From the NCBI GenBank assembly GCA_037952775.1, contig JBANAY010000003.1, positions 6,696,001-6,760,000 on the forward strand: a stretch of DNA of 64,000 nucleotides, given 5' to 3'. Made by a program: the position numbers and the translations under genes. The first letter of the stretch is position 1, and each line of letters opens with the position of its first letter. Origin of the DNA: Clonostachys chloroleuca. Taxonomy: Eukaryota > Ascomycota > Sordariomycetes > Hypocreales > Bionectriaceae. The notes under the pieces are model-generated. The model made no database searches, was not told where the DNA came from, and was given only the letters and a program-made list of their open reading frames with translations. Shown here one piece after another: positions 6,901 to 64,000 of this stretch.

Positions 6901-9900
6901 ATGGATGCAACAAACGACGGGATCGCGGATCTAGTAGATTCGTCTGGCAAGATCCTCCTGGCTTCATACCGACTCCGCGACCGGGTTACGCAGTCGAAGG
7001 ATGACATTGATGCGCTCATTATCGAAGTCGAATCGCTCTCTATCGTCTCCGAGGATGTAAGAGACTCCTTGGATCAGGCCTCCCGAGAAAATAAGTCAGT
7101 TGCTCAAGTCGAAGTGCCAAGCAAAGATGGACAGCAGGGTCAATTGGCGCTGACAGCTTGTCAATCCGCGCTGGATGAGGTCGACAGTATTTTCCAACAG
7201 CTACTCGATGTCATTGGCCCCTTCAGTAAGCCAGGATACAAAGGCGAGGCCACATGGGCATTTGATTCGGCTACCTTGACGAAAAAGCTTGATACACTTC
7301 GTAAGGCGAAGTCGACGCTGAATCTGACGGCATTCGCTCTTCAAAGCGCTTTGTCGGCCGCCGACGAGTTGTCGCAGGACGAGAAGAGCTCCATGCCGGG
7401 AAAACATGGCGACGACTTCCGAGTTGTGCAATCGCAGCGGGAAAAGACCGAAATGCTAGCATGGTATAAGACCAGCGATCCTGAGCGCAAACACATATAT
7501 TGCCAAGAGATCCATGAACAGGGAACGGGTTCCTGGATCTTCGCAAATCCCGAATTTCGACGGTGGAAAAATGCAAGAGAGCAGTTGCTCTGGCTTCATG
7601 CCATACCAGGAGCAGGAAAGACAATTTTGGCCTCAACAATCATCGACCACATGCAAAATCACGTTCGCTCCAAAGTGGGCAATATTGGTCCTTCGGATCG
7701 TGTGGTGTACTTCTATTTCGACTTTGCAGATACCAACAAACAAACCCTTGCAAGTCTCTTGGAGGCCATTGTTTATCAGTTGCTCTCGAAGAATCCAGAG
7801 CCTTCGGAACTGGTGATGGAGTTACATGCCAGCCTCAAAAGCAGGGGTCGAAATTCAGCAAACGCCGAAGAGCTCCTCGACGTATGCTTCGCTGAGGCTG
7901 CTGGCAATGGTAAGACCTTCTTAATTATCGATGCTCTGGATGAATCACAAAAAGGAGAACGGGGAGAATTCTTTCAAAAATGCCTTCACAAGCTTCTTGC
8001 AAACAATTTCAGCATCCTCATCACAAGCCGCAAAGAGCCTGATATTGAGAATTATTTCGAAGACTTCTCCCCCCAAGTGATAAATCTCGAAGCGGCGGAG
8101 GTCGACGAAGATGTGAGAAAACATGTCAACAGCGTCATACATAGTGACTCAACCCTGAGTGCAATGCCGCAAGAAATACAGAAAGAGATATGCGATGAGA
8201 TTGTGGCCGGTGCAGGCGGCATGTGAGTTTCCTCCTGCTCTCCAATGAATCAAATGGAAGTGAACTAGCTGACCATGCTATCACAAAGGTTCCGTTGGGC
8301 AACGTGTCAACTTGACAGAATTAAACAATGCTTGTCTCCGGCCATGATCCGTGCAGAGCTTCAATCAATGCCTCAAACTCTGGATGAGACCTACGAGCGC
8401 ATTTTGGGCTCAGTGCCCGATGTCCACCGGGAACTCGTGCAATCGGCTCTGAAATGGTTAGCTTTCTCTTCTCGCCCGCTACTGCTGGAGGAACTGGCAG
8501 AAGCTGTCGTCCTGAGGCCGGGACACGGGGATTTCAACCCCGCGTCCTCTCGACTTTTTACGGCAAAGGCCATCGTGGACCTTTGTGGTGTTCTAGTCGC
8601 GCAGACAACGATCGATCCACACAAAGAGAACTTGCAATGGCTGAGGAAGAAGGGAGAGGTCGATGCCCATGGCAGACAGAATTTCTACGACAAGATGGCC
8701 ACTGTTGTCTCACTGAGTCATTATTCCGTGAAAGAATATCTTGTATCCTCCAGGCTCCAAGAAAATGCTTTCTCTGCTTACTATGCTTCCGAAGAGGAGG
8801 GTAACTCTTTCATCGCCCGCAGCTGCCTCTTCTATTTGACGCAGTTCAATCAGGGCAAGGTTGCCTCGGATCTGAATTTCGAAAAGTGGCCGCTTCTGCA
8901 ATATGCTGCGGTGGAATGGATAACGCACTGGGACAAGGCGGGCACTATGAGAACTGACGCCATTCTCCGCCAGGTCTACGAGAACCTCTTTCGGCCGGAA
9001 GGTGTTGGGGCCTACGTCAACTGGCTTAATATCTATTCCCCAGATCTTGACTTCGAAGACCGGTTTGGCTATCGTCACTTCGATCCAATCAAGCAATCAG
9101 CAGACTTGTTTCCCCAGCCACTATACTGGGCGGCTCTTCTCGGAGATCCGCTCCTCATGGGGCCGCTGATCAGTCGAGGAGCTGACATCCACGCGCGAGG
9201 AGGCTATTTTGGTTCCGCTCTAGGCGTTGCTGTCTTCCGCGGGCACATTGAAGTGGTGGAGAATCTTCTCCATGCTGGGGCAAGCCCCAACACGGAATGC
9301 AATAGGTTTGGGAGTGTGCTTCAGATCGCAGCCGTGGGAGGCTCCAAGTACATGGTAGAGCGCCTGCTGCGAGCTGGTGCCGATGTCAACGGCCCAGGTG
9401 GCCAAAAATGGGGCTCTGCTCTAATCGCTGCGGCTGCTAACCAGCATCATGATATTGTTTCGCTTCTGATTGATAACGGTGCCGATCTCAATGGCGGCGT
9501 TCAACAGACGGGGTCGGCGCTATACGGGGCAGCGGTGGCTGGCGATGTGAAGCTCGCGAGAGTGCTACTGGCTGCCGGCGCTGATGTGAACGGCTCCCCG
9601 TCTATCCATGATCCCTCTCCCCTCTACGGGGCTACAAAGGCAGGGTCCTTGCCACTTGTGAAGCTGCTCATCGCGCACGGGGCCGATGCCAACAAAGCGG
9701 GTCCAGACGATTTTTCGAGTGCAAAATACCCGCTTCAGATTGCCGCCCACGAGGGTCTAACTGAAATCGTTCGCATACTGCTTTCGGCGGGCGCAGATGT
9801 CAACAAGATGAACAAATATAGAGCGACAGCCCTTGATGAAGCGATTTCCCACAGTGAAGAAGCGATGACCATATGCAAGATGCTGCTGGATGCTGGGGCA

Positions 9901-12444
9901 GATATCAACGCCAAATTTGGCTCCACGTTTCATGACTCGATATTCTCAAAGGCTGTGTCGTACCGCCGCTTTGATTTGGCTAGAATGCTGATAGATAACG
10001 GTGCTGAGCTGAGCCCGCGTGGAGTGTCGGGTGCTGTGATCGCATACAAAAAGGCCCCGTGGGTATTCGAAGCGTTCATGGAGAGAGATGTTGATGTGAA
10101 CGTCGCCGCAGAATACTCTGGCACCCCTTTAAGCACACCATTACACGTGGCCGTGATGAAACGTGACTGTGGTGACGAGTATGTCGTGCGGAAACTCTTG
10201 GAGAGAGGTGCGAATGTCAATGCCATTGACGAGAGTCACTACACCACGCCTCTCGTTTTGGCTGCGCGAGATGGTTCGGCCAATATTGTCCGGTTGTTGA
10301 TCGAATTCGGGGCGGACATTCAACGCACTATCAATTACTCTGCATTTGAGATGGCGATTGCTCATGCTTGCAAAGACGATGGATCACTTGAAGTTGCGGA
10401 AATTCTCTTGGAAAGTGGTTTCAACCTGGCTAAGAATACGGAGATGGCGTAAGTTTGCAGGGATTTTATATTTGATCTCGGACCGCGGTAGATTGCTAAC
10501 TTTTTTTTTAACAGACCGTTCTGGCCAATACAGACGCCCAAGCCCGAGATCATACACTGGCTATCGCACAAGGGGCTTGACTTGAATAGGATTCTTGGCC
10601 CTAAAAACCGGGCAAAAGGTGGCTTTATCTATGGTGATTTCCGTGGCAATAGCTACACCCCGATCCAGCTTGCAGCTAAAGACGGCAGCATTGATATTCT
10701 CCAGTTGCTTCTTGAGCTAGGGGCCGACGTCAATGGACCAGACAGCCCAAAGGAGACAACCTTGCATTATGGATTCAAGTCGGGGGATAAAGAGGTGGTC
10801 CGGTTTCTCCTGGACAATGGAGCCCTTGTTAAGAAGGACTCAAATCTAATCTGGCACGCGATCAAGCATGATTTAGACGAATACGTCCCCATTCTCGTTG
10901 AGAAGGAGGCCGACCTGAATCAGGATTACCAGGATCAAAGCCCCCTTGCGCTGGCTTTTTCATCTGGGAAACACCGTCTTGTCCAGTATCTTCTAAGCCA
11001 AGGTGCTACATTCTCCACAGGTAGTAATGCGCTTGCAAGAGAGCTTGCCACGAAGGGGTCACTCGATGACCTAAAGTTTCTACTTGATCATGGCCTGGAC
11101 CCAAACAGCAAGCGGAGGAAGTATGGATCTTTACTTGCAGCCGCTTGTGCGAATGCAGATACAGCCGTTCTAAAGCTTTTGATAGACGCAGGAGTGCAAC
11201 TAAGCGGAGATGATTGTCAACACGCATTTGGGAGCGCCTGCAAAACTGGTCACATTGAGATGATAAAATTCCTCATCGAACACGGTGCTGATGTTGACAT
11301 CGCAGCAGCACTACAGGAGGCTTTCAGTGCGCCTAACAACCTTGTAATCGTCGAGCTTCTCATGGAACGAGAGAAAACTGTTCAACCAGATCTCGGAAAA
11401 TGCTTCCAGGCAGCAGCGAAAGCAGACTGCCAAAAGTCCATCTCCTATCTTCTCAAGTTGTCAAAGGACCCGTCTGAAACGCCAAGCTATCTAGGACAGG
11501 CCCTCCAAATAGCGGCAAGTAACTCCAATTTAGCTCTTTGCAAGTGGTTAATCGACGAACACGACACAAACGTCAATTATTTTGGCCTTCCCGAAGGAAG
11601 CCCCCTTCAGGCGACCCTCGGCCATGTTTACAGCCAAGAGGGTAACCAAATGCTCGTTTTCCGTCTACTTATCGAGCGAGGTGCCAATGTCAACCCCCCA
11701 AGGATGGAGAAGAAGCCGAGACAGACGACGTCCAACATAAGAAAGCGCCATTTCATGAATTATCCTATCGACACTTCCACTACCTTCGCATCGCCCCTTT
11801 CGCTTGCTATCGCAGGCGGGCGTTGGGGCAGCGCTCAAAAGCCATTCGTGACGCCACTTTTGGATCTCGGGGCAGATGCAAATGGGTTTGGCGGACAGTA
11901 TCATTCTCCTCTTCAAGCCGCTGCACTCCGCTACCCGGAGATGGTCGGTCCACTGCTTGACGCAGGCGCCGACGTAAATGCAACAGATGATGAGAGCGTG
12001 TACGGCACGGCACTTCACGCTGCTGCGTACAAGAGAGATCTGGCCACCGCTAAGATTTTGCTCGACCACGGGGCGGATGTGAATATCATTGCGGGCGACC
12101 ATGGAACCGTGCTGCGAGCAGCTGCCGGTGACGACTTGCGTGGCGGCCAGCAGGGAACAATTGAGATGATGAATCTGCTATTTGAGGTAGGCGTGGATGT
12201 CCACGCGCAGGATAATGAGAAGAACTCGGCGGTACAAGCAGCTGCTCAACAGGGTAACGTTGGAGCGTTGGAATGGCTGAGAGATCATGGCGTGGATATT
12301 TGCGCCGAAGGCGGGAGCAAAGGTAATGCGTACCGGGCTGCGCTCAAAAACCTGAAGAACAACCGTTGTGTTAAATGGGAAGCTGTTACGTGGTTGGAGA
12401 AGCATTACGGTAGGGACTGTTGGGACACGGATCTTCTTCCTTAG
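6901..12444 (+). CDS. NACHT-ankyrin receptor-like protein (STAND NTPase)
   Basis: There are three exons, 6901-8222, 8289-10448 and 10515-12444. The introns are 66 bp each with GTGAGT/AAAG and GTAAGT/ACAG signals, and all phases match. The product is 1803 residues. Order: a helical N-terminal domain (about 1-110) like those of fungal STAND proteins, then a linker, then a NACHT NTPase with Walker A 'PGAGKT' near residue 235 and Walker B 'LIIDALDES' near 340. A winged-helix-like region follows ('WATCQLDRIKQCL', 'LPQTLDETYERIL'-type block). From about residue 730 to the end there are some twenty or more ankyrin repeats with the 'GADVN' turn. The class is known from fungal nonself recognition and cell-death signalling, with repeats as sensor and the N-terminus as effector. 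The true start is the ATG at 6901. Repeat number may vary between strains. Its neighbour on the left is a HET gene. Confidence 0.87.
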
Positions 12445-29451: not shown

Positions 29452-32400
29452 TCATCTTAGAGAAAGTCCTGAAAACATACTACTAAACAGGCCAGAGCTG
29501 CGGTTGTCATGTTTCCGGTGGCCGTCTTTGGGAACCACCTTAGGTGGAGACCTTTTCTGTACTGTGATGACACGGGCCTGCGCCTGTTGAGGCTTAGAAC
29601 GCCGAGCTCCAAATCCCGCTCCTGCTCTTCCACCGATACGGTAAGGCCGCTCTCTGTACGTGGCTTTATGGGCGGACGTGATTGTATTCTTCACCGCTTT
29701 GAGATTCTGCCCAAAGTGTGGGAGGCCATAGAGTCTGGCAACAAGCTGCTCGACACCCTTTTCATCCAGTAGTTGCTCTTTCGCGTTGCGTGGAGCGCGC
29801 ATATGCTTGGTCAGTGTATTGACGAGCTCCAAGTGCGCTTGCTTGTCTTCTTTTAAGCCCTGGAGACGTTTCTTGTTGATGTCCACATTGTGTCTTAGCT
29901 GTCTCCCGGCTTCGATCTTGGACTCTTCATCTTGAATGAGCATGTTGATGTAATCCTCGGTTGCATCGTTGATTGGTGTCAAAGCCCACGCCTTGAGAAA
30001 CAGCCCAAATCGAGCTGCTGCTTCTTGTATTTGCATATGCTCTGATTTGTATTCCCCAATCAGCTTTGACGCTTCCGCGATACCAGTCTGGCGCAGGGTA
30101 ACATCTCCAGCGTTGGCTTGTAACTGTCTCTGGATCTCCGTATCGGTCACCTGAACAGTGACTTGCTCAAGCTCATATAAGACATGCATGTGCTCTTGCC
30201 ACTGATGTGTGCACCTCTTGCAATGATCACTGCCACTGAAAGCGGCGCAGCGGATCAGGTTTGGGTGTGCAACCACGTCTTGCTTCACATCAGTGAGATA
30301 GCACACTGGGTGACAATGGGACTTGTAGATGGTGACAGTCTCTCCGTCTCCCTTTCCACTGTCCTTAAAGTCACAACATGTCGTGTTCTTGCAAACCGTT
30401 CGAGGTTTATCAAGCTGTCGACTTTGGAATTGAATTTTGTCGAGTTGAAGCCTTTTACGGAGGTTATCACCAGTCAGCCTCGTGTCCAGCAGTTGTTGCT
30501 TCTTGTCTTCCATCGCGGTGATATTATCTCTAATCAACTTGGAGATTTCGGCCATAGGCTTGGTGAGCTCCATGATGAGTTGGCGAGCCCCATTTAGACT
30601 AATAGTGCTCACGACACTATGAGGCTTTCTGGTCTTGAAATAGTCGACAGGCCGCACTGATTCCATTCTCGAGTGCTCCCAGCTACGACGGAAATCCTCC
30701 TCGTTGGGGAGAAGGCAGCCATTCTTGTATGCTGCCAAGTATCGGAAGCTCTCTGAATCAAAGCAGTACGTTGTTGAATTCGAGAGTGTCAATCCCATGT
30801 CTGAATGTTCCTTCAAAAGCGACATGAGGGGCTGGAATGTATCTCCAGGAGTGTAATTCGATATTCGCGTGTTGGTGAATCCGAATACAATGTTCTCAAC
30901 AGCGCTTCGATGGAGGTGTGCCAGTAATTCTTTGACGCAAAAGCGGAAAGTGATTGTCAGGCGGGCGTTGTTTGACTTGAGAAGAATCAATATTCCGTGG
31001 AGATTCTCGTAGCTGCTAAGCGTGCTAAGGATATCTGCCATGTTCTTCTTGTCATATTGGATTCCCCTTGTATCTCCAATCCCCGGAGTGTCAATCAACC
31101 TATATGTGGCTGAGCCAATATTGACTGAATACACGTTCGTCTGTTGAGTTGCAGATGCACCCTTAGATCCATCTGCTTCATCATCACGGCCACCAACTTT
31201 GATAACCTTCTCTTCAATTGGTTGGTTTGGATCACTTCTGTTCATGACTTGAATAGAGAAGGAGCATGGGATCACCGATTCTAATTGGTCAGACGCCTTG
31301 GCGAGATCGAGAGTTTCGTAAGATAGGTAGTTGATGAAGGCGTTGATGAACGTGGATTTCCCTACCCCAGTTTCGCCCAGAATCAGGATGTTGATGTAGT
31401 CTGACTGGTCCAAGTTGCCCAGGAGCCCACCGAGAGTCTTGGTAGAATAGGGAACGTAGTCAGTTCCGTGACGATCACCATTGCATTTGAATTGATAGCT
31501 TCTATACGGTGCGCGTCCACATTCACAATATATGAATTCATCCGTGAAGCCATACTCAATAGGAGCAAGACAGAAAGAACATGACCATTCGCATATTCTA
31601 GTTGGATCACATTTGCCACACGGACATGGTATCTTCACGAACCGGCGTTTGACGGGCTTGTTGTTTAGACTGGTATCAAGAGCGATCGTCTGGTACTGAG
31701 CGAGAGATTTCTCGGCCATAAATTTCTGGTGATCGAGCAAATCGGAGATGCTTTCCTCGCCATTCTGGAAGCGACAAATGCGAGGAGCATCCGAATCCAA
31801 GGACTTGGACGCCGCATCACAGTCTACAACGTAGACAGGAGCTGTTTGGCGGGCGCGTGTGAGCAGCCCCATCAGCAACGCACAATTGTCATTCCAGAGA
31901 TCTTGGCTTTTCATCGCATTTCGGTTGAAGAGAAAGGCATAGCAGCCACTGTCGCCATGGGAATCAATGGCATCCTCATAAGAGAGCCTATTGTGGCCGA
32001 TATAGATGGCTCCATTGGAGACCACATGATTAATGAAATCAAGCTTGGCACCCTCTTGACCAGCGATAGCGGATAGCTTCCTTGGAGAGAAATCTCCGTT
32101 GTTGTACTGGTTGAATAAGTCCCAAAGAGTCGTTGACGCTGTTTGACCTCGCCGTACGCTCACTAAACCTTCCTTGAACTCCTCTTGGGCAAGCTTTTTT
32201 GCCTTCCCAAGCTGATCAATGGACCGACGCACTTCTTGAATGTGGCTCTCTGATGTGTGGAGGCTATGCCGACTAAGATCAGCGTAGTACGCTCGTAGCT
32301 TGGCTTCCGCAATCTCGTAGTTATCAAACAGGTTGGTGAACTTGGCGAGATACTCGGGGCTTATGGGGGATGAAGTGACTTGGAGCTCATGGGGCAACTG

Positions 32401-33174
32401 GATGAAGTGATGCAACATGGTCAAAGGAAGCAAGGCATATGATAATGGCCACCCCTTGCCGTTGCTGCTCTGGCTGATATGGTCAGGTATTAGGCGGATG
32501 AACTGTAGGCCCTCATCCGCTGTCTGCAAAACCAGCCCTTCCTCTTCAAAAGCATCGCTGTATAATGTATAATCATACTCTGGGTTCATCCGAGATGAAG
32601 TAGTGTTCGCGGCGCCCCGACTCTCAGCTTCAAAGAAAGCACGAAGCTTGGTCAGATCCGCTTCGAAGGCATCCTTGGAATCCTTGTAGTTGGCATCTTG
32701 GGATAAGTGCTGCTTCACCTCCAGGACGGTATGTAAGCCCCAGTTGATTCCCAAAACCACATGGGTGCTATCGCGGTTTTGAAGCAAGTCCAAATCAAGA
32801 TGATTGTGGAGTTCTGGGGCCATGAAGTTCAGTTTCTCCTGTACAGTGGAAACATGATGATGAATCGCCCCGCAGAGTATCAGCTTATCGCTCGAGGCAT
32901 TGCGAAGATAAACACCTGATCCCTGTGGCTTAATCAAACCAGCGAGAATGCTAGCGGCGGTGTCACCTTGGATATCAAGGGCATTATGGCGCTCACGATA
33001 CGTTCCCCCAACTGTGACGGAGCTGTTGGTTTTCTCAGCCGGCCGCTCAGTCACAGCACCAGCTGGGGGCACGCCAGTTAGAATAGAGCCCGGGTGAAAG
33101 ATGTCGAGTTTGGCATCATAAAGAGCCCCAAGAGCGACTTTCTGGCCGAGAGCCGGGCGATCTGAGTTACTCAT
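29452..33174 (-). CDS. large GTPase with stonustoxin-like N-terminal domain
   Basis: An intronless 1240-residue frame starts at the ATG at 33174, just before the conserved start block. Residues 1-260 resemble the MACPF-like N-terminal domain of the stonustoxin family, with 'LGQKVALGALYDAKLD' and 'FHPGSILTG' and a later 'VVLGINWGLHTVLEV' strand. The next 230 residues are helical. A Cys-rich zinc-type segment (about 520-580, 'CPCGKC', 'SCSFC', 'CECG') follows. Then comes a P-loop GTPase: G1 'GETGVGKST' near 598, G3 'DTPGIGD' near 693 and 'FGFTNTR' in the G4 place, so it lacks a normal NKxD. Another Cys-rich segment ('NTTCCDFKD', 'HCKRCTHQW') and a coiled coil end the protein. Fungal proteins of this order are uncharacterised; a membrane-acting, GTP-controlled role is an inference. 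The stonustoxin-like call rests on sequence pattern only. Confidence 0.75.
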   Translation of the reverse strand: MSNSDRPALGQKVALGALYDAKLDIFHPGSILTGVPPAGAVTERPAEKTNSSVTVGGTYRERHNALDIQGDTAASILAGLIKPQGSGVYLRNASSDKLILCGAIHHHVSTVQEKLNFMAPELHNHLDLDLLQNRDSTHVVLGINWGLHTVLEVKQHLSQDANYKDSKDAFEADLTKLRAFFEAESRGAANTTSSRMNPEYDYTLYSDAFEEEGLVLQTADEGLQFIRLIPDHISQSSNGKGWPLSYALLPLTMLHHFIQLPHELQVTSSPISPEYLAKFTNLFDNYEIAEAKLRAYYADLSRHSLHTSESHIQEVRRSIDQLGKAKKLAQEEFKEGLVSVRRGQTASTTLWDLFNQYNNGDFSPRKLSAIAGQEGAKLDFINHVVSNGAIYIGHNRLSYEDAIDSHGDSGCYAFLFNRNAMKSQDLWNDNCALLMGLLTRARQTAPVYVVDCDAASKSLDSDAPRICRFQNGEESISDLLDHQKFMAEKSLAQYQTIALDTSLNNKPVKRRFVKIPCPCGKCDPTRICEWSCSFCLAPIEYGFTDEFIYCECGRAPYRSYQFKCNGDRHGTDYVPYSTKTLGGLLGNLDQSDYINILILGETGVGKSTFINAFINYLSYETLDLAKASDQLESVIPCSFSIQVMNRSDPNQPIEEKVIKVGGRDDEADGSKGASATQQTNVYSVNIGSATYRLIDTPGIGDTRGIQYDKKNMADILSTLSSYENLHGILILLKSNNARLTITFRFCVKELLAHLHRSAVENIVFGFTNTRISNYTPGDTFQPLMSLLKEHSDMGLTLSNSTTYCFDSESFRYLAAYKNGCLLPNEEDFRRSWEHSRMESVRPVDYFKTRKPHSVVSTISLNGARQLIMELTKPMAEISKLIRDNITAMEDKKQQLLDTRLTGDNLRKRLQLDKIQFQSRQLDKPRTVCKNTTCCDFKDSGKGDGETVTIYKSHCHPVCYLTDVKQDVVAHPNLIRCAAFSGSDHCKRCTHQWQEHMHVLYELEQVTVQVTDTEIQRQLQANAGDVTLRQTGIAEASKLIGEYKSEHMQIQEAAARFGLFLKAWALTPINDATEDYINMLIQDEESKIEAGRQLRHNVDINKKRLQGLKEDKQAHLELVNTLTKHMRAPRNAKEQLLDEKGVEQLVARLYGLPHFGQNLKAVKNTITSAHKATYRERPYRIGGRAGAGFGARRSKPQQAQARVITVQKRSPPKVVPKDGHRKHDNRSSGLFSSMFSGLSLR

Positions 33175-33794
33175 TTCTAGAGCAATCCTATAGAATCTGC
33201 ATTTGTATCCAGGGAATTCTGAAGATGGGAATATCAAAGAAGTGAAACTGCAGGGACTAAGGACGTAAGATCAATATGGGCATGGCGGGAACGTCCATTT
33301 GCCTGCCGCAACGCTGTGGTTTCTTATCACGGCCTAAATGTGCACATGTTGATCTCTTTGGCACTTCATATTGTGAAATCAATAATGACATTGCCTCCTT
33401 GTACCGGTACTTGCACAATCGATGCACCTCGTATTATCATCAGCGCGCCATTACCCCTAAGTAGTAAGACCTGCCTCAGCTCCCACGCCACATGGACGCA
33501 CTACCGCCTGAGCTGACACCAAACTGCATCTTCCATTGGACATTGGCGAGCCACGACGCACCTTTCTAGACTCGTCACATCTGACCCCTCATTCCTGTGG
33601 ACGCCTTTCAGGCAGAGCGGTAGGCGAAGTGATAGCGCCGTGCTCTACAACACGCGCTACCATCAAATCATGCAGCGTGCAGTTCTCACAAAGGTGCAGA
33701 ATTCGATTCTCGGTTTACAAGGAATCTCCGTTCAGAATGGCCGCAATACAGACCTCACACAGGATTTTGACATTGGGGAATTCCCAAAGCTGAC
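33175..33794. other. 0.6-kb divergent promoter region
   Basis: Shared upstream region of the GTPase gene and the BTB-like gene. It contains a 10-bp palindrome GTACCGGTAC at about 33403. A short upstream open frame (33737-33793, 18 codons) ends one base before the BTB-gene ATG. Confidence 0.45.
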
Positions 33795-52405: not shown

Positions 52406-54581
52406 ATGTCCTCGTACAAAATTGGCCAAATTGATGTACTTCATCAAGATATTATAAGGCCTACTCATGGAGAACCTCGATCTCCTTCGCGCACCATCCT
52501 CAAACCAGGACACAGGCGAACTGAGAAGAACCGTCCTATTTTAGTCGGAACCATTCGCGAGAGTGATCAAATACTCACCATGCGTGATGGAGTGACCCTC
52601 CGTGCGGATGTGTTTCGCCCTGTCGCCGACACGAAAGTACCAGCCATCACCATGTATGGCCCCTATGGTAAATCTGGATCAGGTGTATATCCTAATAACC
52701 TGAGAGAGAAGTTTTCAGGATATCCCACTTACGCATGAATAGGATGATTTGACACAGACAAATTTCCTTTCCGTGTTGGTATACCTGAATCGAAGTTGTC
52801 TGGCTATGAAAATTTCGAAGGGTGAGTCAACCTCGCCAACGAAGGCCCAAAGCCGCTATCAGTATCATTTTACTCTCCGTGTACCGCATATTCACTGACA
52901 CCAATTTGACCAGCCTCGACCCTGCTGAATGGGTACCAAAGCAATATGCCATTATCAACGTTGATGCCGGAGGTATCAATGATTCCGAAGGAAATGTAAG
53001 ATGTTGGGACTCTGCAGAGGGAGAGGACGGGCACGATACTGTCGAGGAGGTTGCAAAACTCCCGTGGTGCTCGGGAAAAGTCTCAATGGCCGGCAACTCT
53101 TGGCTAGCGGCTTGTCAGTGGTACACAGCAGCTCAAAACCAACCTCACCTGGCCTGTATTGCACCTATGGAAGGCATCAGTGATACTTTCAGAGAGCATA
53201 TGTACCGCGGTGGAATTCCGAACACGCGATTCGCAACTCCTTTGTCGGCATCGTTTATCGGTCGGTTTTATTCAAACTAAAAACTCGCATTTGTTGTGCT
53301 AACAGATCCAAGTGAGAGGACAAAGAGATGACATGCCAGCAACGGCAGCTAAGTATCCAGATAATAACGAGTATTGGGACGACAAACGTGCAAAGATTGA
53401 GGGTATCAAGGTGCCTAGATACATTTTCGCAAGCTATTCAACGGGCTTACACAATGTTGGTTCTTTCCGCGGTTTTGAAGAGATTGAATCCAAAGATAAA
53501 TGGTATAAACGAGTACTTCCAACCCCTCAGCACCATTTGTCACTAACTCTTGAGTAGGATATCTGTTCACGCGACCCAAGAGTGGTACGACCTCTATACC
53601 AAGGAGCGCACAGATGACCTTCAGAAATTTATGGACCGATATTTGAAGGGAGTTGATAACGGCTGGGAGGATACGCCTCGTGTCCGATACGCCTTTATTC
53701 GGTTCAACAGAGACTCCGAAGTCAACGTGCCATTCACTGACCTTCCTTGGAACCTTTCCAGCGCAATGGAAAAGCGCCTTTTCCTATCAGCCGATCGAAA
53801 GCTATTATCGACGAAGGCGTCCGAGCCGGGCCAGGTTAGCTATCAAGCAGACGCTCCATCCAAGTTGATGGGACCCGACCATGATGATCCATTTTTCTCC
53901 TATACTTTTCTTCAACGAACCAGACTTGCAGGACCGGCAACGGCTATCCTCTACGTTTCTTCTCCTATCAGTAATGACACGGATGTGAATGTTTAGCTGC
54001 GCAAGGCGGATAAAAACGGAGAAGTGCTAACCTACGACAATATCCCATTAAAGGACATTGGGGTTTCCACAGTCTCAGAGGTGCCAAATACTAACGTGAT
54101 GAAGTATTTGGGACCTACAGGAATGCTTCGTGCGTCAAGACGCCACGTTTCTGAAGATCTGTCTAGTAGGAGTAAATCTTGGAGAACGCTGTCGCATAGT
54201 CAGGTCGAGCCCGTTGAACCTGGCAATATAGTTCGGCTCGAGATACCACTGTGGCCAACTGGGCTGGTATTTGATGCCGGGGAGAGGCTATTGCTCTACG
54301 TATCAGGGCACTACATGACGCTGCCTGAGTTTGAAACGATGCCGCCATACGAAAATTATAACCGGGGAGAACACATCATTCATGTCGGAGGGGAATTTGA
54401 TAGTTCTTTAGTTTCTACCACGTTTAGGAAAATTATACCTCTCGTAGTCATCCTAGTCAAATCTTGGATCGCCGTAGTAGTAAATATGAAATACTCTGAG
54501 AAGATCGGTTTTGCGCCCGATTCATCAACTCCTCGTAGCCGACATCTTATCGAGGCTATAGAGTCAACGTGTAAGAAATAG
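52406..54581 (+). pseudogene. broken S15/CocE-type hydrolase gene
   Basis: The plus strand spells a CocE/NonD or X-Pro dipeptidyl-peptidase (S15) type hydrolase in pieces: an N-terminal 'LTMRDGVTLRADVFRPV' and 'PAITMYGPYGKSG', then 'YAIINVDAGG', the nucleophile elbow 'MAGNSWLAACQW', 'YIFASYSTGLH', 'ATQEWYDLYTKE' and a C-terminal jelly-roll part ('LRLEIPLWPTG'-like, 'HIIHVGGEFDSS'). In-frame stops interrupt it at 52736 and 52745 (TGA) and at 53994 (TAG, where CAG is expected). There are also frame changes near 53265-53330 and 53540. Some junctions look like introns, but the stops within conserved blocks do not. The family's usual length is over 600 residues. The C-terminal run-on past 'GGEFDSS' overlaps the end of the GH5 gene and is probably not original. 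Confidence 0.72.
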
Positions 54582-56790
54582 AGTTGCCCTCAACCCGAGG
54601 GTAAAACTCGAACAAAAACTCTACCGGCTTACCCAAGCTCTTGACAGCTTGGAGTGTAGCATCTTTAAGAACCACCTGAGCCCCATCAAAGAAGAATTGA
54701 CCATTGTATGTCTAGTATCAAAACATGTCAGTGGACTGTCTATTGTTTGGTGCAGACAGATAATACTCACGATTCTTGCCTGCTGAAGGGGACCAAGCCA
54801 CTGCGTCCAGTCATCAAAGAGATATGTGCCATCTGTAGCCTTTGCTCTCACAGCCGCAACCAACTTGAGACCATTGTAGTTAATAGGGATACTCAAATCT
54901 TGGCCCAGAACTGGTGCTGGGGTCGAGAGGAACTTTGGTGTATCCCACTGAATAATCTCAACGTTGGAGAACGCCCCGGCAGAGAATGTCAGTGTGAGGT
55001 TCGCCTTGCTTCCCGTTGACACACTGGGTCCGAGGTACTGCGACAAGAAGCTCTTTGTGAACGTGATGGAGTCGGAGGCGGTTGTGTAGTCACTCCCACT
55101 GGAAAGAGTCTTACCGCTATTTGTCTTGACCCCAGTGAGAGTGTTGCCGTTGAACAACCAGGGAAGCTTGTAGTCGGCGACCTCACTGCCGACTCGGTTC
55201 CAAATGAAAGCCGAGCTAGACTGAGTCGTAGCACTGGCGTCTGTAGTGCTGTCTGGCAAAGAGTTCTTCTGACCGGCAAGGGCGGCTTTCAGGATAGCGA
55301 TTGAAACGGGGTCGCGCCAGATACCCGTGTTGCGATCAAGGTGATCAAGACCGTTGTCCCAAACGATAGGGGCAATACCAAGGGTTTTTATGGTAGTTGC
55401 CAAGTGATCGAACCACTTCCATCGTGCGGCGGGCTCGGTGTGCACAACGCTCACGTCGAATTCACCAAGAATCAGCGGGACGTTGGTGAAATTGCCGCGC
55501 ACAATGGAGAACTCGTTGGTCATTGTGGTCTTGTCGTCAGCAGATCCCCAGATGGTCTTGCCCCATGCTCCAAAGACGAAGTCATCTGTGAAGTGTCAAC
55601 ATCCTACCTAATCTAAGAATAATAGAAAACCGGCGACTTACATGGAGAATAGTAATGGAACTGTAGCGCCCACGGGTTGTTGACGCCTGAAGGTGGCTGG
55701 AACCACTGAGTCGTCTTGGTGGCATCCATGCCACCGCCGGCAAACTGCAAGACTCGCTGAGGGTTGAAGCCGCCACTAGCTACAACCGCGTCATTAAATA
55801 TCTGGTTGAATTGGTTGATAAGGGCACCATGAGCGGCTGTAGTAGCAGGCGGCTCATTGATGGACTCAAATGACAAGCGCGAGGATTTACAACGCAACTT
55901 TGTCGCCACCTGTGTCCATACGGCCTTGAAGCGGCTCTGGATGGCGGTTATATCAGCCCCTGAAGCTGTAACGTCTGCCCACTCCCAAGAGTCTATTCAT
56001 AATTAGAAACCAGATCAAAAGGTGGAACTAAGCACCCGTACCATGATGAAGATTGGTGATGACGTATAAGTTCCTTGCAAGAGCCATGTCAATCACATTC
56101 TCGACCCGTTGCAGCCAATTGGCATTGACTGTCCAATTAGGAGACTCGCTGTCGAGATGGTGCGTATATGTCACTGATTTCATTAGCTATATTTCGTTCT
56201 TCGAGTTACTCCAATCAACTACTTACCAGGTATTCTGACAGTCTTGAAACCTTCTGAGACCACATAGTCAAAGACTTTCTCTGTCACTGGAGGATTGTTC
56301 CATGAATCCTCGTTCGGTGTTGCATCGAGGCTATTTCCGAGATTCCACCCAACACCAAGGGCAGCAACATAACTGCTGGCAGAAACAGGAGTAAACGAGC
56401 CAGTGCAGGCACCCGAGGTACTCGTAGTTCCAGGTTGAGAGCTGGTTCTGGTAGATGTAGCTGAGGTGGTTGAGGTAGACAGAGTTGTTCGAGTACTACT
56501 CGTTGTTGAAGCAGTTCCCGGTACGCATTGCGAATACCCTGCTCCTTTAGCATCTGCTGTCTCCATTCAAGCTGAACATTCAACTTACATTCATTCTGAA
56601 CCTGGCAATAGTAGCCAGATATACAGGTCGTTGGCCCAGTCCAATTATTGCCGCCACCTCCTCAAGTTAATATCAAGTACTTATCGTTCATAGACACTGA
56701 ATGATACTTACATTGGCCGTATGCTGGAGCCTGGGCAGCTACTCCTTGCCACAGAGCTACAGCAAACACAATTGCCACGTTTCTTTTCAT
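54556..56790 (-). CDS. endo-beta-1,4-glucanase GH5 with CBM1, X2 and CBM46-like domains
   Basis: Seven exons (56712-56790, 56589-56657, 56227-56538, 56042-56173, 55642-55992, 54771-55585, 54556-54711) join in phase through introns of 49-59 bp and give 637 residues. A signal peptide ('MKRNVAIVFAVALWQGVAAQ') is followed by a CBM1 cellulose-binding module (about 24-58; 'YGQCGG', 'WTGPTTC', 'WYSQCV') split by two introns. A Ser/Thr-rich linker leads to a GH5 catalytic domain: 'LGVGWNLGNSLDA', acid/base Glu244 in 'SINEP', nucleophile Glu356 in 'LGEFDV'. The C-terminus has an Ig-like CBM_X2 ('NTLTGVKTNSGKTL') and a CBM46-like domain ending 'EFYPRVEGNSISYTLTL'. It cleaves internal bonds in cellulose or related glucans outside the cell. 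Two CreA-type motifs lie 130-170 bp upstream. Confidence 0.92.
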
Positions 56791-58429
56791 CTTGGCTCTC
56801 GTTTATCGTGTATAGGATCTACATGACGAATTAATTGATCATGAATGTCTGCTTAAATAGTTCTGAAAGCTATAGTACGCAGTCCAGCTAGTTAGAAGCA
56901 ATACGGATTTTATTTTCCCGGGGCGGGACTGTCTGTGTCTTGATCCGACGCCCCCGGCTGCAATATTGAGCAATATATATTTTTTCTCCCATGTGACTTT
57001 TCAATAGCTCAATTGAGGTCTTACGATAGCTCCCTTATGTCCAACATGGCAGCTTGGTGCCAATGCTATATAGCAGATTTAGCCTGTTTAATCATGGGGT
57101 CCCCCGCAAGACGGCAGCAAAGCGTTCGTGGGCTCATTGGTGTGATATTATGGTGTCATCGGACCTGCTTCTTTAACGACTCTCTCGCCCACATTTATCG
57201 AAAATGGGCCACGGCGAGCTGCTTCCGAGCGCCGCTAAATGAGATGGCTACAAAGGAAGCTGGCCCGAAATTCCATGAGCGAGCCAAGATAACTTGTTAT
57301 TAATACTTACAAATTGCTACTGGCAAGAGGATTTTCACGAATTTCCGAGGCTTAACCATGTCCGAGTTGGATATGTTACGTTAAACCACTTCGGCGATTT
57401 TGTAAGTTGAGTTATTGGGACGCATATAAGCTGAGGTTTCATTCCGTCATAGAGCGTCTTCATTCATTGCCACGCCGACGTTAGAGAGGAAACTAGTGTT
57501 CTTCCACTAGTCTTAGTGCTTTTGTGAGTCCTCTTTTGTCAAGGAGTGAAAAGCAAGTAGTTGGTCGTTTGGCTAGCAAGTCGATAGAGGCCAGTCAGTG
57601 CCGAAGTAGGGTGTCGGCAACTGGAATGGCCCATCCAAGGCTCAATTCCTAATTTTTTCTGTCCTCTCTCAATTTACCGAGATGAAATGAGTAACAGTAG
57701 TATTCTTTAAGGATAAAAAAAACATGTCAGAAAGACAGCTGTCGTCTCTCAGGGTTAAGTCTAAAAGGCAAGCATCGCAAAAGGTCATCCGGAATAAGGT
57801 CCTCCAGGAATATTATTCGACCAGCAGATAGATATATGCAAGCTCTTGAGTCAAATACTAAATATGGAACGTAGCTTACCTACCTGAGGCGCGCATCTAT
57901 AACTTCTCATGGCTATCTTCGTCCTTCCAACGATAGAATGGCTGATTTCGCGTTCCAAGATTCGACTTCTCATATCCGACGTCTTCTCGCCTCGTTCATT
58001 GTCTCTTCGGCGGCATATCTAGCGCCATATTGTTAGATTTAGTCTATCGCCTTCAATAGTTTTCAAATCCACCAAGGCTAGAGTGTACTCCAGCCTAGGT
58101 TGATGTTATCTAAGTCCTAGGGGACACCAACTAGCTAGGGGACCCTACGGTAAGGTAAGAAATGACTTGCTACGAGGAGAAATAGGCTTTCACTGGTAAG
58201 CACATTATCAAATGAGGACAAGCTGGAGTAAAATATATATATATATATATAAATTAGCACTCATAAATAAGTTAATCATTTAAATACATCGTAAGGGTTT
58301 CGTAAATACTGTTGGCAATGTGCATTGAATGAAGTCCAGTGACAGGCTGTAATCGCCTGGCCTAAGTGTGAAAAGGCACTCTACCGGGCTTCACAGCCGA
58401 TATCATGTTGCTTCGTAACACCCAGTGGG
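56791..58429. other. 1.6-kb gap
   Basis: The left 300 bp is the GH5 promoter. Further right, short open frames without family features and a (TA)9 microsatellite at 58233-58250 are seen. No gene was recognised. Confidence 0.45.
56918..56957 (-). promoter_or_regulatory. two CreA-type motifs (SYGGRG) upstream of GH5 gene
   Basis: CCGGGG at 56918-56923 on the plus strand and CCGGGG on the minus strand at 56952-56957 match the binding consensus SYGGRG of the carbon-catabolite repressor CreA. Paired sites close to a cellulase gene are common. Function is inferred from consensus and position. Confidence 0.4.
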
Positions 58430-60373: not shown

Positions 60374-61991
60374 ATGCTGCCCAGGTTAGCTCAGGCCACG
60401 AGCCTGCGCCTAGCTGCCACACGGGCTATGCCCATTGCCCGAGCGCGACCTGCATTCGCCATCTCGCCAGTGCTGCGAGCCTACTCTCAGAACAAAAATA
60501 ACAGCCCACTCGACCAAAGTGGCAAACCAGACCAGTCCGCCGGCTCCAAAGCGACGCCCTCCCAATCCGAGCCTTCACAAGCAACATCCTCCGAGTCGAA
60601 CAAAGCCCCCGAGACTCCTGCCGAAGAAGAGCCAATCCCATTCCACAAGCTGCCCGACTTGACCCAGGGTATTCCCTCGACGTTCGAACATGAGAAACGA
60701 GGTTCCACCCAGGATACCGTCACCTCGGCCCTGCAGGCTGTCGACCAAGAACAATATGAGAGGCGAGGCGGTGGCCAGCGCGACTCCTACGTATCTACTA
60801 GCGACCGTAACCGACGATGGTGGACCCGATTCCTGCTCTTCACAGCCGGAGGTGGCTCCATCGCCGGTGCGCTTTACCAAGGCCGCGACTGGGAAGACGA
60901 AATCCAAGTCAACCGCCACCCCGACATTCCCAATGGCATCTCTCCTACTCTATGGTGGCAACGCGCCAGGGCTCGTCTGTCCGAGTCCATGTCATATTAC
61001 CAAGATCCCGAATTCGACAAGCTTCTTCCCGATCCCGACCCAAGCTTCGAGCGCCCATACACTTTGGTTCTAAGTCTCGACGATCTGCTCATCCACTCTG
61101 AATGGACTCGACAGCACGGTTGGCGCATTGCCAAGCGACCTGGGTTCGACTACTTTATCCGCTACCTGAGCCAGTACTACGAATTGGTTCTCTTCACCAC
61201 CACCCCCTTCGGTCTGGGCGAGCCTGTTCTCCGAAAGCTTGACCCATTCCGATTCATCATGTGGCCTCTTTGGCGTGAAGCGACCAAGTTTGAGAATGGA
61301 GAAATCGTCAAGGTTAGTTGGATTACAGACCCGTCTTTCGTCGCATCAATTGGCGATTTCTAACCAGAAATAGGATCTCTCTTACCTCAATCGTGACTTG
61401 TCCAAAGTCATCATCATTGACACCGACCCCAAGTACGTCCGTAAGCAGCCCGAGAATGCCATTGTCCTCAAGCCATGGAAGGGAGACCCCAGCGATACCG
61501 ATCTAGTTGGTCTCATCCCCTTCCTCGAGTACATCCACACCATGCAATACACCGACGTCCGCAAGATCCTCAAGTCCTTTGACGGCAAGCACATCCCCAC
61601 CGAGTTCGCCCGTCGCGAGGCCATTGCCCGCAGAGAGTTCGAGGCCCAACAAGCCGTTCAAAAACACAAGAAGCATGTCCCCTCTGGCTTTGGAGCCTTG
61701 GGCGGCCTGCTTGGACTCGATGCCAAGCACCTCTCGATGAGCCCCGAGGGCGAGATCAACCCCAGCCAGGCGTTCGCACAGGGCAAGATGCTCCAGGACA
61801 TTGCGCGCGAGCGGGGACAGCGCAACTACGAGGAGCTCGAGAAGCAGATCCGGGAGAACGGCGAGCAGTGGCTGAAGGAGGAGAAGGAGGCCATGGAGAA
61901 GGCCCAGAAGGAGATGATGGATAGCATGTTCGGCTCCTTCGGCGGCATGTTCATGGGCAAGAAGCCTGAGGAACAACCCAAGAAGGAGTAA
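60374..61991 (+). CDS. tim50: mitochondrial import inner membrane translocase subunit Tim50
   Basis: Exon 1 (60374-61312) and exon 2 (61374-61991) join in phase over a 61-bp intron, giving 518 residues. Tim50 is the receptor of the TIM23 complex that guides presequence proteins through the inner mitochondrial membrane. The N-terminus is a basic, Arg/Ala-rich presequence, followed by a low-complexity stretch and one transmembrane segment ('[16 protein letters not shown]', near residue 155). The intermembrane-space domain is FCP1/phosphatase-like: '[22 protein letters not shown]', '[24 protein letters not shown]' and 'KVIIIDTDP'; the phosphatase DxDxT signature is altered, as is normal for Tim50. 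The C-terminus is charged and ends in '[10 protein letters not shown]'. This is the one clear core gene of the window. Confidence 0.96.
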
Positions 61992-62622
61992 AACCGGCTG
62001 CAAACGAAAAGCATCTTGACTGGGGAGTCCTTCCCAGTCGAGACACGAATCTCTCCACTTCTACCGACTATTTCACAACTACTTGTATAATGTGGGAAAA
62101 CCAAACGACGAGAGTCAGGAACGGGGGGCGGCGCATGTTGAGAATTCTGATACATAGAGGGCACATGTCTTTACCATCTCGTTCGTTTTATTATCATTTA
62201 ATGTCGGTATAGGGAAACTCGGCATATAGAACTCGACAAGCATCACGAAGAAAGGGGGGACGAGAGAGAAGAGGTGGATGTGTACGACTTGGGCTTTTGG
62301 ATGCTTGTCCGCAAAAATCATTGTATATTAACACTCACTCTGTACGATGTCATGGCGGGAGGCACGAAAAGTTGTTCTAGGTGAGATGACCATTAAAAAG
62401 CAAAAATCAAGATTATTTTTCCAACAGATGGATGACTGGCAGGTGTCATCCCGAATGATGGTGTGCGGTGAAATCTCCATCACCTGTGCTAGGTCTGGCT
62501 GTGTTTCTATATTACCAATGTCAGACCTTCCCAGATGTCTCGTCCTCCCATATCCACGCGTCGGAAGCGATACGCATCCAGTCCAAGCTACTACGAAAGC
62601 AAATTCCCACCGCCACCCGCTG
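61992..62622. other. 0.6-kb convergent spacer
   Basis: 3' flanks of tim50 and of the three-module secreted gene. No gene, RNA or repeat recognised. Confidence 0.5.
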
Positions 62623-63565
62623 CTACGTCGTTGCTTGCCCCGTTGAAGAAATGGACGTGAGGTCCAGGGCTGTTGGTTGAGTGATGAGTGTGCTCGGTCG
62701 TGTGGTCAAGGTGCCGTTGTTGAGGAAGCAGTGCTCACAGGCCGGGTTCGAGATACAGCGGATGTAGCTGCCAACGTATCAGTTCTTTCGTCCATTCTGG
62801 GGTTAACAGCGAGGGGAGGACTTACTCCGGGCTTTTCTTGTCCGCGATCAAGCTGCAGTCGCAGGGGCCGCCGATATAGCAGTTATCGGGTAGCCGAGGG
62901 GCGCCAGTGGTTGTCTGGGATGTGGAGGACGAAGTCGTTGACGATGACGCTGAAGACGGTTGTGTTGGCGTCGTGGGAAGGGGCATTGATATAGTAATTG
63001 AGATCAGGGAGATCGACGAACTCTGAGTGGCGGTAGGTGTAGTTGGTGGTGTCCAGGTCGCCGTGAAATAGCAGCGCTCGCAGTCGGGATTGCTGAGGCA
63101 TTGCCTGTATCTGATGAGCTAGTTAGCCAGCTATCCATTTCAGACCAGATACTTCGGGGGGTCTCTCACTCGTCACTGTTCTTATCCTGGATGTAATCAC
63201 AGTCGCAGGGACCTCCTTTGTCGTTACAATTATTCGTCTTGGTGGAAGTCGGCGTGGTTTGCGGAGTCGTGATAGACACTGAGCTGTCTCGGGCCAGCCG
63301 CATGTCCATTTCTCTTTGGACTCCATTGATGCAGTCTATGAATCTGAAGAGGTCCGAACTGTAAGTCTTATCATTCTTCGCCTCTTGCTTCTCAGTAAAC
63401 TTACTCGTCCACGGTGTCAAAGTCAGAAATACACCCGCAACCCTGCACGCAAGGCCGGGTCTGCACTCGAGCACGCCTCTTTCCCGACCCGGGAAATCCT
63501 CCTCTATGAGCGAAGGCAAGGCTTTGGGGCAAGAAGCCCAAAATCAACGTCTGGACGAACTTCAT
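62623..63565 (-). CDS. secreted protein with three repeated Cys-rich modules
   Basis: Four exons (63405-63565, 63170-63343, 62826-63110, 62623-62767) join in phase through introns of 61, 59 and 58 bp and give 254 residues. A signal peptide ('MKFVQTLILGFLPQSLAFA') and a KRR site come first. Then three copies of a module follow: 'PCVQGCGCISDF..DEFIDC', 'GGPCDCDYIQDKNSDEYRQC' and 'GGPCDCSLIADKKSPDYIRC'. The last two end in 'SNPDCERC' and 'SNPACEHC'. Every module is cut by an intron at the same phase-2 place, after the acidic residue. The modules are linked by Ser/Thr/Pro-rich spacers, and the tail is also Ser/Thr-rich. A different acceptor for intron 1 would add five residues. I know no named family; it should act at the wall or outside the cell. 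Confidence 0.82.
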
Positions 63566-64000
63566 TGTGGTCAGATGGGAGGTTGTTGGAGAATATGTGG
63601 TTGTTTGCCTAGCCAGGGCGAAAAGAATTATATGAGTTGGAGCGAGGGATGGCCATTATTGATCGCTGAAAACAGCAGCCTCAAGAAGGGGCGGCAGTGG
63701 TCTTATATTATTCAACTTGGCAATGCTTCCGACTTCGAAGGACGACGACGCGTACATCTCACATAATGTCGTACTGTCGGTTGAGTTGGGGCGTTTAGCT
63801 GGGCTGTCAGCCAATCCAATCCAAGATCTCTTCGAAGAAGGGGATCTGCTTCCCTGATGAGTGCCTCAGCTCTCTCCATGCCACAAGCACACAGAGGTGC
63901 CCTCGCTGCTCTCACCCAACCAAGAGTTGAGTCGTCCCAGACGCCTCAAGTGGCGAGCAAGCACCAAACAGAATCGGCACCATCATCTGGTTTGTTCATG
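63566..64000. other. upstream region at window edge
   Basis: Promoter side of the three-module secreted gene, with an AT-rich ATATAATTC element about 60 bp upstream of its ATG. No further gene can be supported before the window ends. Confidence 0.4.

What the first reader, a model, noticed from the sequence alone, without database searches (positions are those of the whole stretch)
62623..63565. Secreted protein built from three Cys-rich modules, each cut by an intron at the same place
Sequence shows three related modules of about 35 residues (core GPCDC...DE/D-Y-x2-C...SNPxCExC in modules 2 and 3, a diverged first copy) joined by Ser/Thr/Pro-rich spacers behind a signal peptide. All three introns are phase 2 and fall at the same codon of the module, so exon-level tandem duplication is the simplest origin. 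I know no described family with this module.
Basis: partly seen in the sequence, partly recalled or inferred. Interest (0 to 1): 0.75.

Follow-up and report, generated by a model that had tools for sequence, protein, structure and literature searches.

The report
Genus-restricted fungal secreted cysteine-rich protein
A mould that appears to belong to the biocontrol genus Clonostachys carries a gene for a secreted-looking protein built from two clear copies, and one doubtful copy, of a small cysteine-rich unit for which no catalogued domain was found; it is probably an outside-the-cell binding or interface protein, and its job is unknown.

Summary
The gene lies on the minus strand, 63565..62623: four exons, three short introns (61, 59, 58 nt), 254 residues, 16 Cys, signal-peptide-like start. 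All three introns are phase 2 and split the acidic codon of a [DE][YF]xxC motif that occurs only three times in the protein. Modules 2 and 3 are clearly homologous (0 of 5000 shuffles). Module 1 is not shown to be a copy by sequence (6-10% of shuffles score as well); only its intron position and layout argue for it. Proteins with the same junctions are predicted in C. rhizophaga and C. solani; C. rosea, C. rosea IK726 and C. byssicola have altered or truncated models. Three protein searches gave no relative outside Clonostachys; Pfam, NCBIfam and PDB gave nothing significant; no second copy of the module was found in the genome. Best reading: a lineage-restricted, disulfide-rich secreted protein with an undescribed module on Ser/Thr/Pro spacers, probably a multivalent extracellular binding or interface protein. 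Function is inferred; the structure model (pLDDT 37) decides nothing. Exon duplication is supported for modules 2/3 only; the size of the duplicated piece is unknown.

The parts
62623..63565 (-). whole gene, ATG to stop, 4 exons, 254 aa
   Evidence: orthologues P0001-P0003
63509..63565 (-). signal-peptide-like start, residues 1-19 (ends L-A-F-A)
   Evidence: sequence; highest 15-residue hydropathy (1.39) starts at residues 3-4, though spacer 2 reaches 1.36 at residue 142; no signal-peptide predictor was run
63473..63481 (-). K29-R30-R31, Kex2-like dibasic site, invariant in the 4 aligned proteins
   Evidence: the Kex2 reading is recalled knowledge
63405..63457 (-). module 1, first half (C39, C43, C45)
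63344..63404 (-). intron 1, 61 nt, phase 2
63307..63343 (-). module 1, second half (C58; lacks the C-x2-C pair)
63235..63306 (-). spacer 1, 24 residues, 54% Ser+Thr+Pro
63170..63234 (-). module 2, first half (C93, C100, C102)
63111..63169 (-). intron 2, 59 nt, phase 2
63065..63110 (-). module 2, second half (C116, C122, C125)
62888..63064 (-). spacer 2, 59 residues, 69% Ser+Thr+Pro
62826..62887 (-). module 3, first half (C189, C195, C197)
62768..62825 (-). intron 3, 58 nt, phase 2
62722..62767 (-). module 3, second half (C211, C217, C220)
62626..62718 (-). tail, residues 224-254, 52% Ser+Thr+Pro, one N-glycosylation sequon at N224

Best explanation
A real gene, found so far only in Clonostachys and in one copy in this genome, for a secreted, disulfide-rich, modular protein without a recognised catalytic domain. 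Shown: the exon layout as the DNA reads, the homology of modules 2 and 3 with the intron at the same codon and phase, the same protein under four named Clonostachys species labels (rhizophaga, solani, rosea, byssicola; some models partial), and no second locus found. Inferred: the leader is removed after residue 19 and a short propeptide after the K-R-R site; each full module closes its six cysteines (C-x5/6-C-x-C-x13-C-x5-C-x2-C) within itself; the Ser/Thr/Pro spacers are O-glycosylated and hold the modules apart as beads on a stiff string; and the repeated modules act together as a multivalent binding protein in the fungal wall or at the contact with other fungi or plant roots. Modules 2 and 3 arose by internal duplication of a piece that held a module with its intron, before the sampled species split.
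For: Gene model and phases. Modules 2/3: 0 of 5000 shuffles; the DNA of their first and second halves is also similar, 0 of 1000 and 5 of 1000 shuffles. Columns identical in the 4 full-length proteins: module 2 33 of 37, module 3 34 of 37, module 1 23 of 30, against spacer 1 14 of 24, spacer 2 39 of 59, tail 22 of 31 (region borders are mine, no significance test was made). All 16 cysteines are invariant in those 4; they are even in number per module (4, 6, 6). All hits at E up to 10 are Clonostachys: 3 hits among 967, 3 among 3 and 2 among 1580 candidates. Own genome: the 4 exons are the 4 best of 6 matches; of 14 GPCDC-type hits 12 lie elsewhere and of 9 NPxCExC-type hits 7 lie elsewhere, and none of these 19 has the other half-module within 300 nt on the expected side by the pattern tested.
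Against: No expression, proteomic or binding data were available here. The structure model is poor (pLDDT 37.3, pTM 0.18). C. rosea P0003 keeps 11 and 22 extra residues at introns 1 and 2, C. byssicola P0005 stops at intron 2 and IK726 P0004 lacks the front part, so annotations disagree on splicing. No binding face or sugar-binding motif was shown. The homology searches need shared 5-residue words and covered lengths of about 44-450 residues only, so distant, or longer, relatives can be missed.
Confidence: 0.5

Rival explanations
1. Apoplastic effector: the protein is secreted during root colonisation or mycoparasitism and dampens a host response, like other small secreted cysteine-rich proteins.
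For: 254 aa and 16 Cys (6.3%) meet the 'cysteine-enriched' rule of PMC9978495 (under 300 aa, over 4% Cys; passages read), a class given there as on average 118 of 1478 secreted proteins; all hits found are Clonostachys.
Against: Modules 2 and 3 are more conserved between species than the spacers, not fast-evolving; no expression data; no effector predictor was run.
Confidence: 0.25
2. Carbohydrate-binding or wall-protecting protein, working like LysM or CBM proteins but with an unrelated module.
For: Repeated small Cys-rich modules on Ser/Thr-rich spacers without a recognised enzyme domain; in C. [quoted passage not shown] A 17-position stretch resembles a piece near the end of a chitinase chain (3w4r, E 0.45), which is at chance level.
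Against: No binding-module family in Pfam at E up to 10; the 3w4r match is not significant and begins after the module's C-x-C.
Confidence: 0.2
3. The three introns were gained separately at a recurring target site (GA|GT) in modules that already existed, so the shared position does not date back to the duplication.
For: All three donor sites read GA|GT and the three introns show no similarity to each other (pairs 1-2, 1-3, 2-3: 745, 93 and 490 of 1000 shuffles score as well).
Against: Same codon and phase three times: 1.4e-8 for one given phase if introns were placed at random (computed after seeing the gene). Short introns lose similarity quickly (recalled), so its lack says little.
Confidence: 0.08
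4. Precursor that is cut into separate small cysteine-rich peptides.
For: A K-R-R site invariant in the 4 aligned proteins lies just before module 1.
Against: The only later dibasic pair is K-K at 203-204, inside module 3; there is none between modules, so the usual Kex2 route (recalled) would release one long chain.
Confidence: 0.06

Closest known systems
Orthologous unnamed proteins of Clonostachys (P0001 C. rhizophaga, P0002 C. solani, P0003 C. rosea)
   Same: Same protein over 100% of the query at 93, 86 and 68% BLASTP identity; same modules and spacers.
   Different: P0003 keeps 11 and 22 extra residues at introns 1 and 2.
Cysteine-enriched secreted proteins of Clonostachys (PMC9978495)
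   Same: Length under 300 aa, Cys above 4%, signal-like start.
   Different: That is a bin by size and composition, not a family; whether this gene is in their tables was not seen (supplements not available).
Fungal CBM1, CBM18, LysM and CFEM proteins (names recalled)
   Same: Small extracellular modules, often Cys-rich and on Ser/Thr-rich linkers (recalled).
   Different: No Pfam match; cysteine spacing differs as far as recalled.

Membership tests
Any Pfam-A domain (CBM1, CBM18, LysM, CFEM and CBM14 are thought to be among them) | profile match at or above the curated cut-off | tested here: not met
   whole protein and modules 2 and 3 alone (module 1 not alone); only EndIII_4Fe-2S at 15.9 bits (cut-off 20.5), E 0.016, 11 residues around C-x2-C. 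Filters drop most matches above E about 0.1.
NCBIfam families | profile match at E up to 10 | tested here: not met
   0 families for P0001 and for P0002; the library serves bacteria and archaea.
A family with a solved structure | significant sequence or profile match to a PDB chain | tested here: not met
   best E 0.27 (disintegrin 1rmr) and 0.45 (chitinase 3w4r)
A known fold | confident model matching a known fold | tested here: inconclusive
Cysteine-enriched secreted proteins as in PMC9978495 | under 300 aa and more than 4% Cys | tested here: met
   254 aa, 16 Cys, 6.3%
Cysteine-enriched secreted proteins as in PMC9978495 | predicted signal peptide, no transmembrane domain, GPI anchor or mitochondrial signal | not tested
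   the start looks like a signal peptide (sequence); no predictor was available
Protein grown by symmetric exon duplication | homologous modules cut by introns of the same phase at the same codon | tested here: met
   modules 2 and 3
Protein grown by symmetric exon duplication | module 1 is a further copy | tested here: inconclusive
   intron position fits, sequence similarity not significant

The most novel reading that the evidence does not exclude
The founding member of a new disulfide-rich module that arose inside Clonostachys or its close ancestors and grew by duplication of a symmetric phase-2 exon, giving the genus its own multivalent extracellular protein, with retention of intron 2 as a possible switch to other forms (as the C. 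byssicola and C. rosea models would read; untested).
Probability: 0.3. Interest if true: 0.5.

Novelty: new variant of a known kind. Interest (0 to 1): 0.36.

Why it matters
Lineage-restricted secreted Cys-rich proteins are common in fungi (recalled), but here the growth of one can be read in the gene: two recognisable copies, a possible third, and introns at one codon and phase. It offers a small test case of how a new extracellular module multiplies in a genus used for biocontrol. The function is open, which limits its weight.

Tried and rejected
Paralogues in the same genome: the whole-protein search gave the 4 exons and two further matches at E 0.31 and 0.82 with stops inside, taken as chance and not looked into; the tool scores only the best candidates. 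GPCDC pattern: 14 hits against 13 for the reversed control. NPxCExC pattern: 9 hits against 4. A search with the last 50 residues found only this gene, with a second match at E 0.05 in its exon 3. The 12 and 7 outside hits were checked by script for the other half-module within 300 nt; none has it.

Known domains: Pfam, NCBIfam, PADLOC (P0001 only) and PDB by sequence and by profile gave nothing significant. Rfam reached no gathering score in 61900-64000. No tandem DNA repeat at score 30 or more there.

Module 1 as a copy by profile comparison: unproven. Intron and spacer similarity as a trace of duplication: none found. The low-confidence model was not used for a fold search.

Literature: seven searches. 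Listed of found: 11 of 11, 5 of 5, 15 of 19, 3 of 3, 0, 8 of 15, 6 of 77. No title or start of abstract listed names this protein; full texts were not read for it. Seen: passages of PMC9978495, outline and abstract of PMC7176902, search listings for the rest. Supplementary tables could not be read, so the gene may be listed there.

Full report
The gene. On the minus strand an ATG at 63565 opens a frame that runs to a stop ending at 62623 once three introns of 61, 59 and 58 nt are removed. The donors are GTAAGT, GTGAGA and GTAAGT; the acceptors CTTCAG, CATCAG and TGGCAG. The product has 254 residues with 16 cysteines. Exons 2 and 3 (174 and 285 nt) are symmetric. Third-position GC is 65%, close to the 63% of the first exon of the TIM50-like neighbour. 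Other acceptors exist near introns 1 and 2 (for example the TTACAG before the chosen one in intron 1 would keep the frame); the chosen ones are those that fit P0001 and P0002.

Modules. Module 2 (residues 91-127) and module 3 (187-222) share C-x5/6-C-x-C-x13-C-x5-C-x2-C with 18 of 30 aligned residues identical; none of 5000 shuffles, with or without cysteines fixed, scores as high. Module 1 (37-66) has four cysteines and lacks the last pair. Its similarity is not significant: 410 and 289 of 5000 full shuffles (498 and 414 with cysteines fixed) reach the score against modules 2 and 3, and 29 of 200 and 30 of 200 in profile comparison. Its claim to kinship is the intron: in residues 20-90 just 1 of 213 codon-and-phase slots would place a phase-2 intron on a [DE] codon followed by [YF]xxC, and intron 1 is there. 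That rule was set after seeing the gene.

Introns. All three are phase 2 and split the acidic codon of [DE][YF]xxC, a motif found at just those three codons of the protein. The introns do not resemble each other detectably, nor do the spacers. So the duplicated piece most likely held a module with its intron, but its borders cannot be read.

Relatives. The protein database gave three full-length relatives, all Clonostachys: P0001 C. rhizophaga (93%, a cluster of 8 members whose other names were not seen), P0002 C. solani (86%), P0003 C. rosea (68%) (3 hits at E up to 10 among 967 candidates). A search with module 2 of P0002 alone gave the same three (3 among 3 candidates). A profile of modules 2 and 3, with candidates of about 44-140 residues, gave two more models, P0004 from C. 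rosea IK726 and P0005 from C. byssicola (2 among 1580). For that profile I used 7 of the 8 rows made and dropped the P0003 module 2 row because it holds extra residues. P0004 lacks the front of the protein and P0005 ends at the intron 2 border. Proteins longer than about 450 residues were outside the searched lengths. The window's genome is taken to be a Clonostachys from these matches; it was not named to me. Identical columns in the four full-length proteins are denser in modules 2 and 3 (33 of 37, 34 of 37) than in the spacers and tail (14 of 24, 39 of 59, 22 of 31), with module 1 between (23 of 30); this fits selection on the modules, untested by rates.

Splicing in relatives. P0001 and P0002 show no extra or missing residues at the three junctions. 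P0003 carries 22 extra residues at intron 2 whose end (LIRYRQC) equals the window's intron end read in one frame, so it looks like a retained homologous intron; it also has 11 extra residues at intron 1. P0005 ends with NSDE, as the window would if intron 2 were kept (one search shows NSDE followed by a stop). These may be annotation errors or real alternative forms; no RNA data were at hand.

Genome. Searches found one copy in the 59.4 Mb genome (counts are lower bounds). Neither half-module pattern has a partner elsewhere by the test used. Its neighbours are a TIM50-like gene (NIF domain, E 9.6e-18; the name TIM50 is recalled) and, upstream, a long frame with metallophosphoesterase-like motifs (recalled; no Pfam match at 1e-3; frame).

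Known families. No Pfam, NCBIfam or PADLOC family and no PDB chain matched significantly. The AlphaFold2 model from three sequences has mean pLDDT 37.3; modules 2 and 3 show a similar low-confidence pattern, a helical turn at the third cysteine, a helix bearing the fourth and a helical stretch at N-P-x-C. This is a hint only. A second model, of the single-module protein P0004, could not be obtained.

How it may work. The even cysteine count per module, the Ser/Thr/Pro spacers and the lack of a recognised catalytic domain suggest closed, stable modules spaced along a glycosylated chain, as in many extracellular binding proteins (recalled). A K-R-R site before module 1, invariant in the four proteins, suggests removal of a short propeptide; no dibasic pair lies between the modules, so the modules should stay joined. 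What it binds, if anything, is unknown. Rivals are an effector role and wall protection; both could be true of a multivalent binding protein. Confidence: that the gene and its modular layout are real, about 0.9; that it is secreted, about 0.85; the binding or interface role, about 0.5.

Literature. By size and cysteine content it falls into the cysteine-enriched class of PMC9978495 (passages). In C. rosea LysM proteins are reported to act in hyphal protection and root colonisation (PMC7176902, abstract), which makes an extracellular modular binding protein in this genus plausible but proves nothing here. No title or start of abstract in seven search listings names this protein (three of the listings were partial).

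Noticed in passing
window 52406-54480 (+): Pieces of frames of a CocE/X-Pro-peptidase-like hydrolase (name recalled, not tested) with an in-frame TAG near 53995; possibly a pseudogene or a sequence error.
   Followed up: partly
window 54560-56792 (-): Glycoside-hydrolase-like gene (recalled) with a CBM_X2 domain in the frame 54621-55523 (E 5.3e-21) and what looks like an N-terminal CBM1 with a Ser/Thr linker (recalled motif, sequence).
   Followed up: partly
window 29452-33237 (-): Long frame with a MACPF_SNTX domain (E 3.2e-21), DUF7656 and a weaker GTPase match.
   Followed up: no
window 3208-5445 (-), 8275-10452 (+), 10582-12444 (+): A HET-domain frame and two neighbouring ankyrin-repeat frames.
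   Followed up: no
P0003, P0004, P0005 (orthologues): Database gene models of the same gene disagree: intron 2 kept in frame (P0003), front missing (P0004), truncated at the intron 2 border (P0005).
   Followed up: partly
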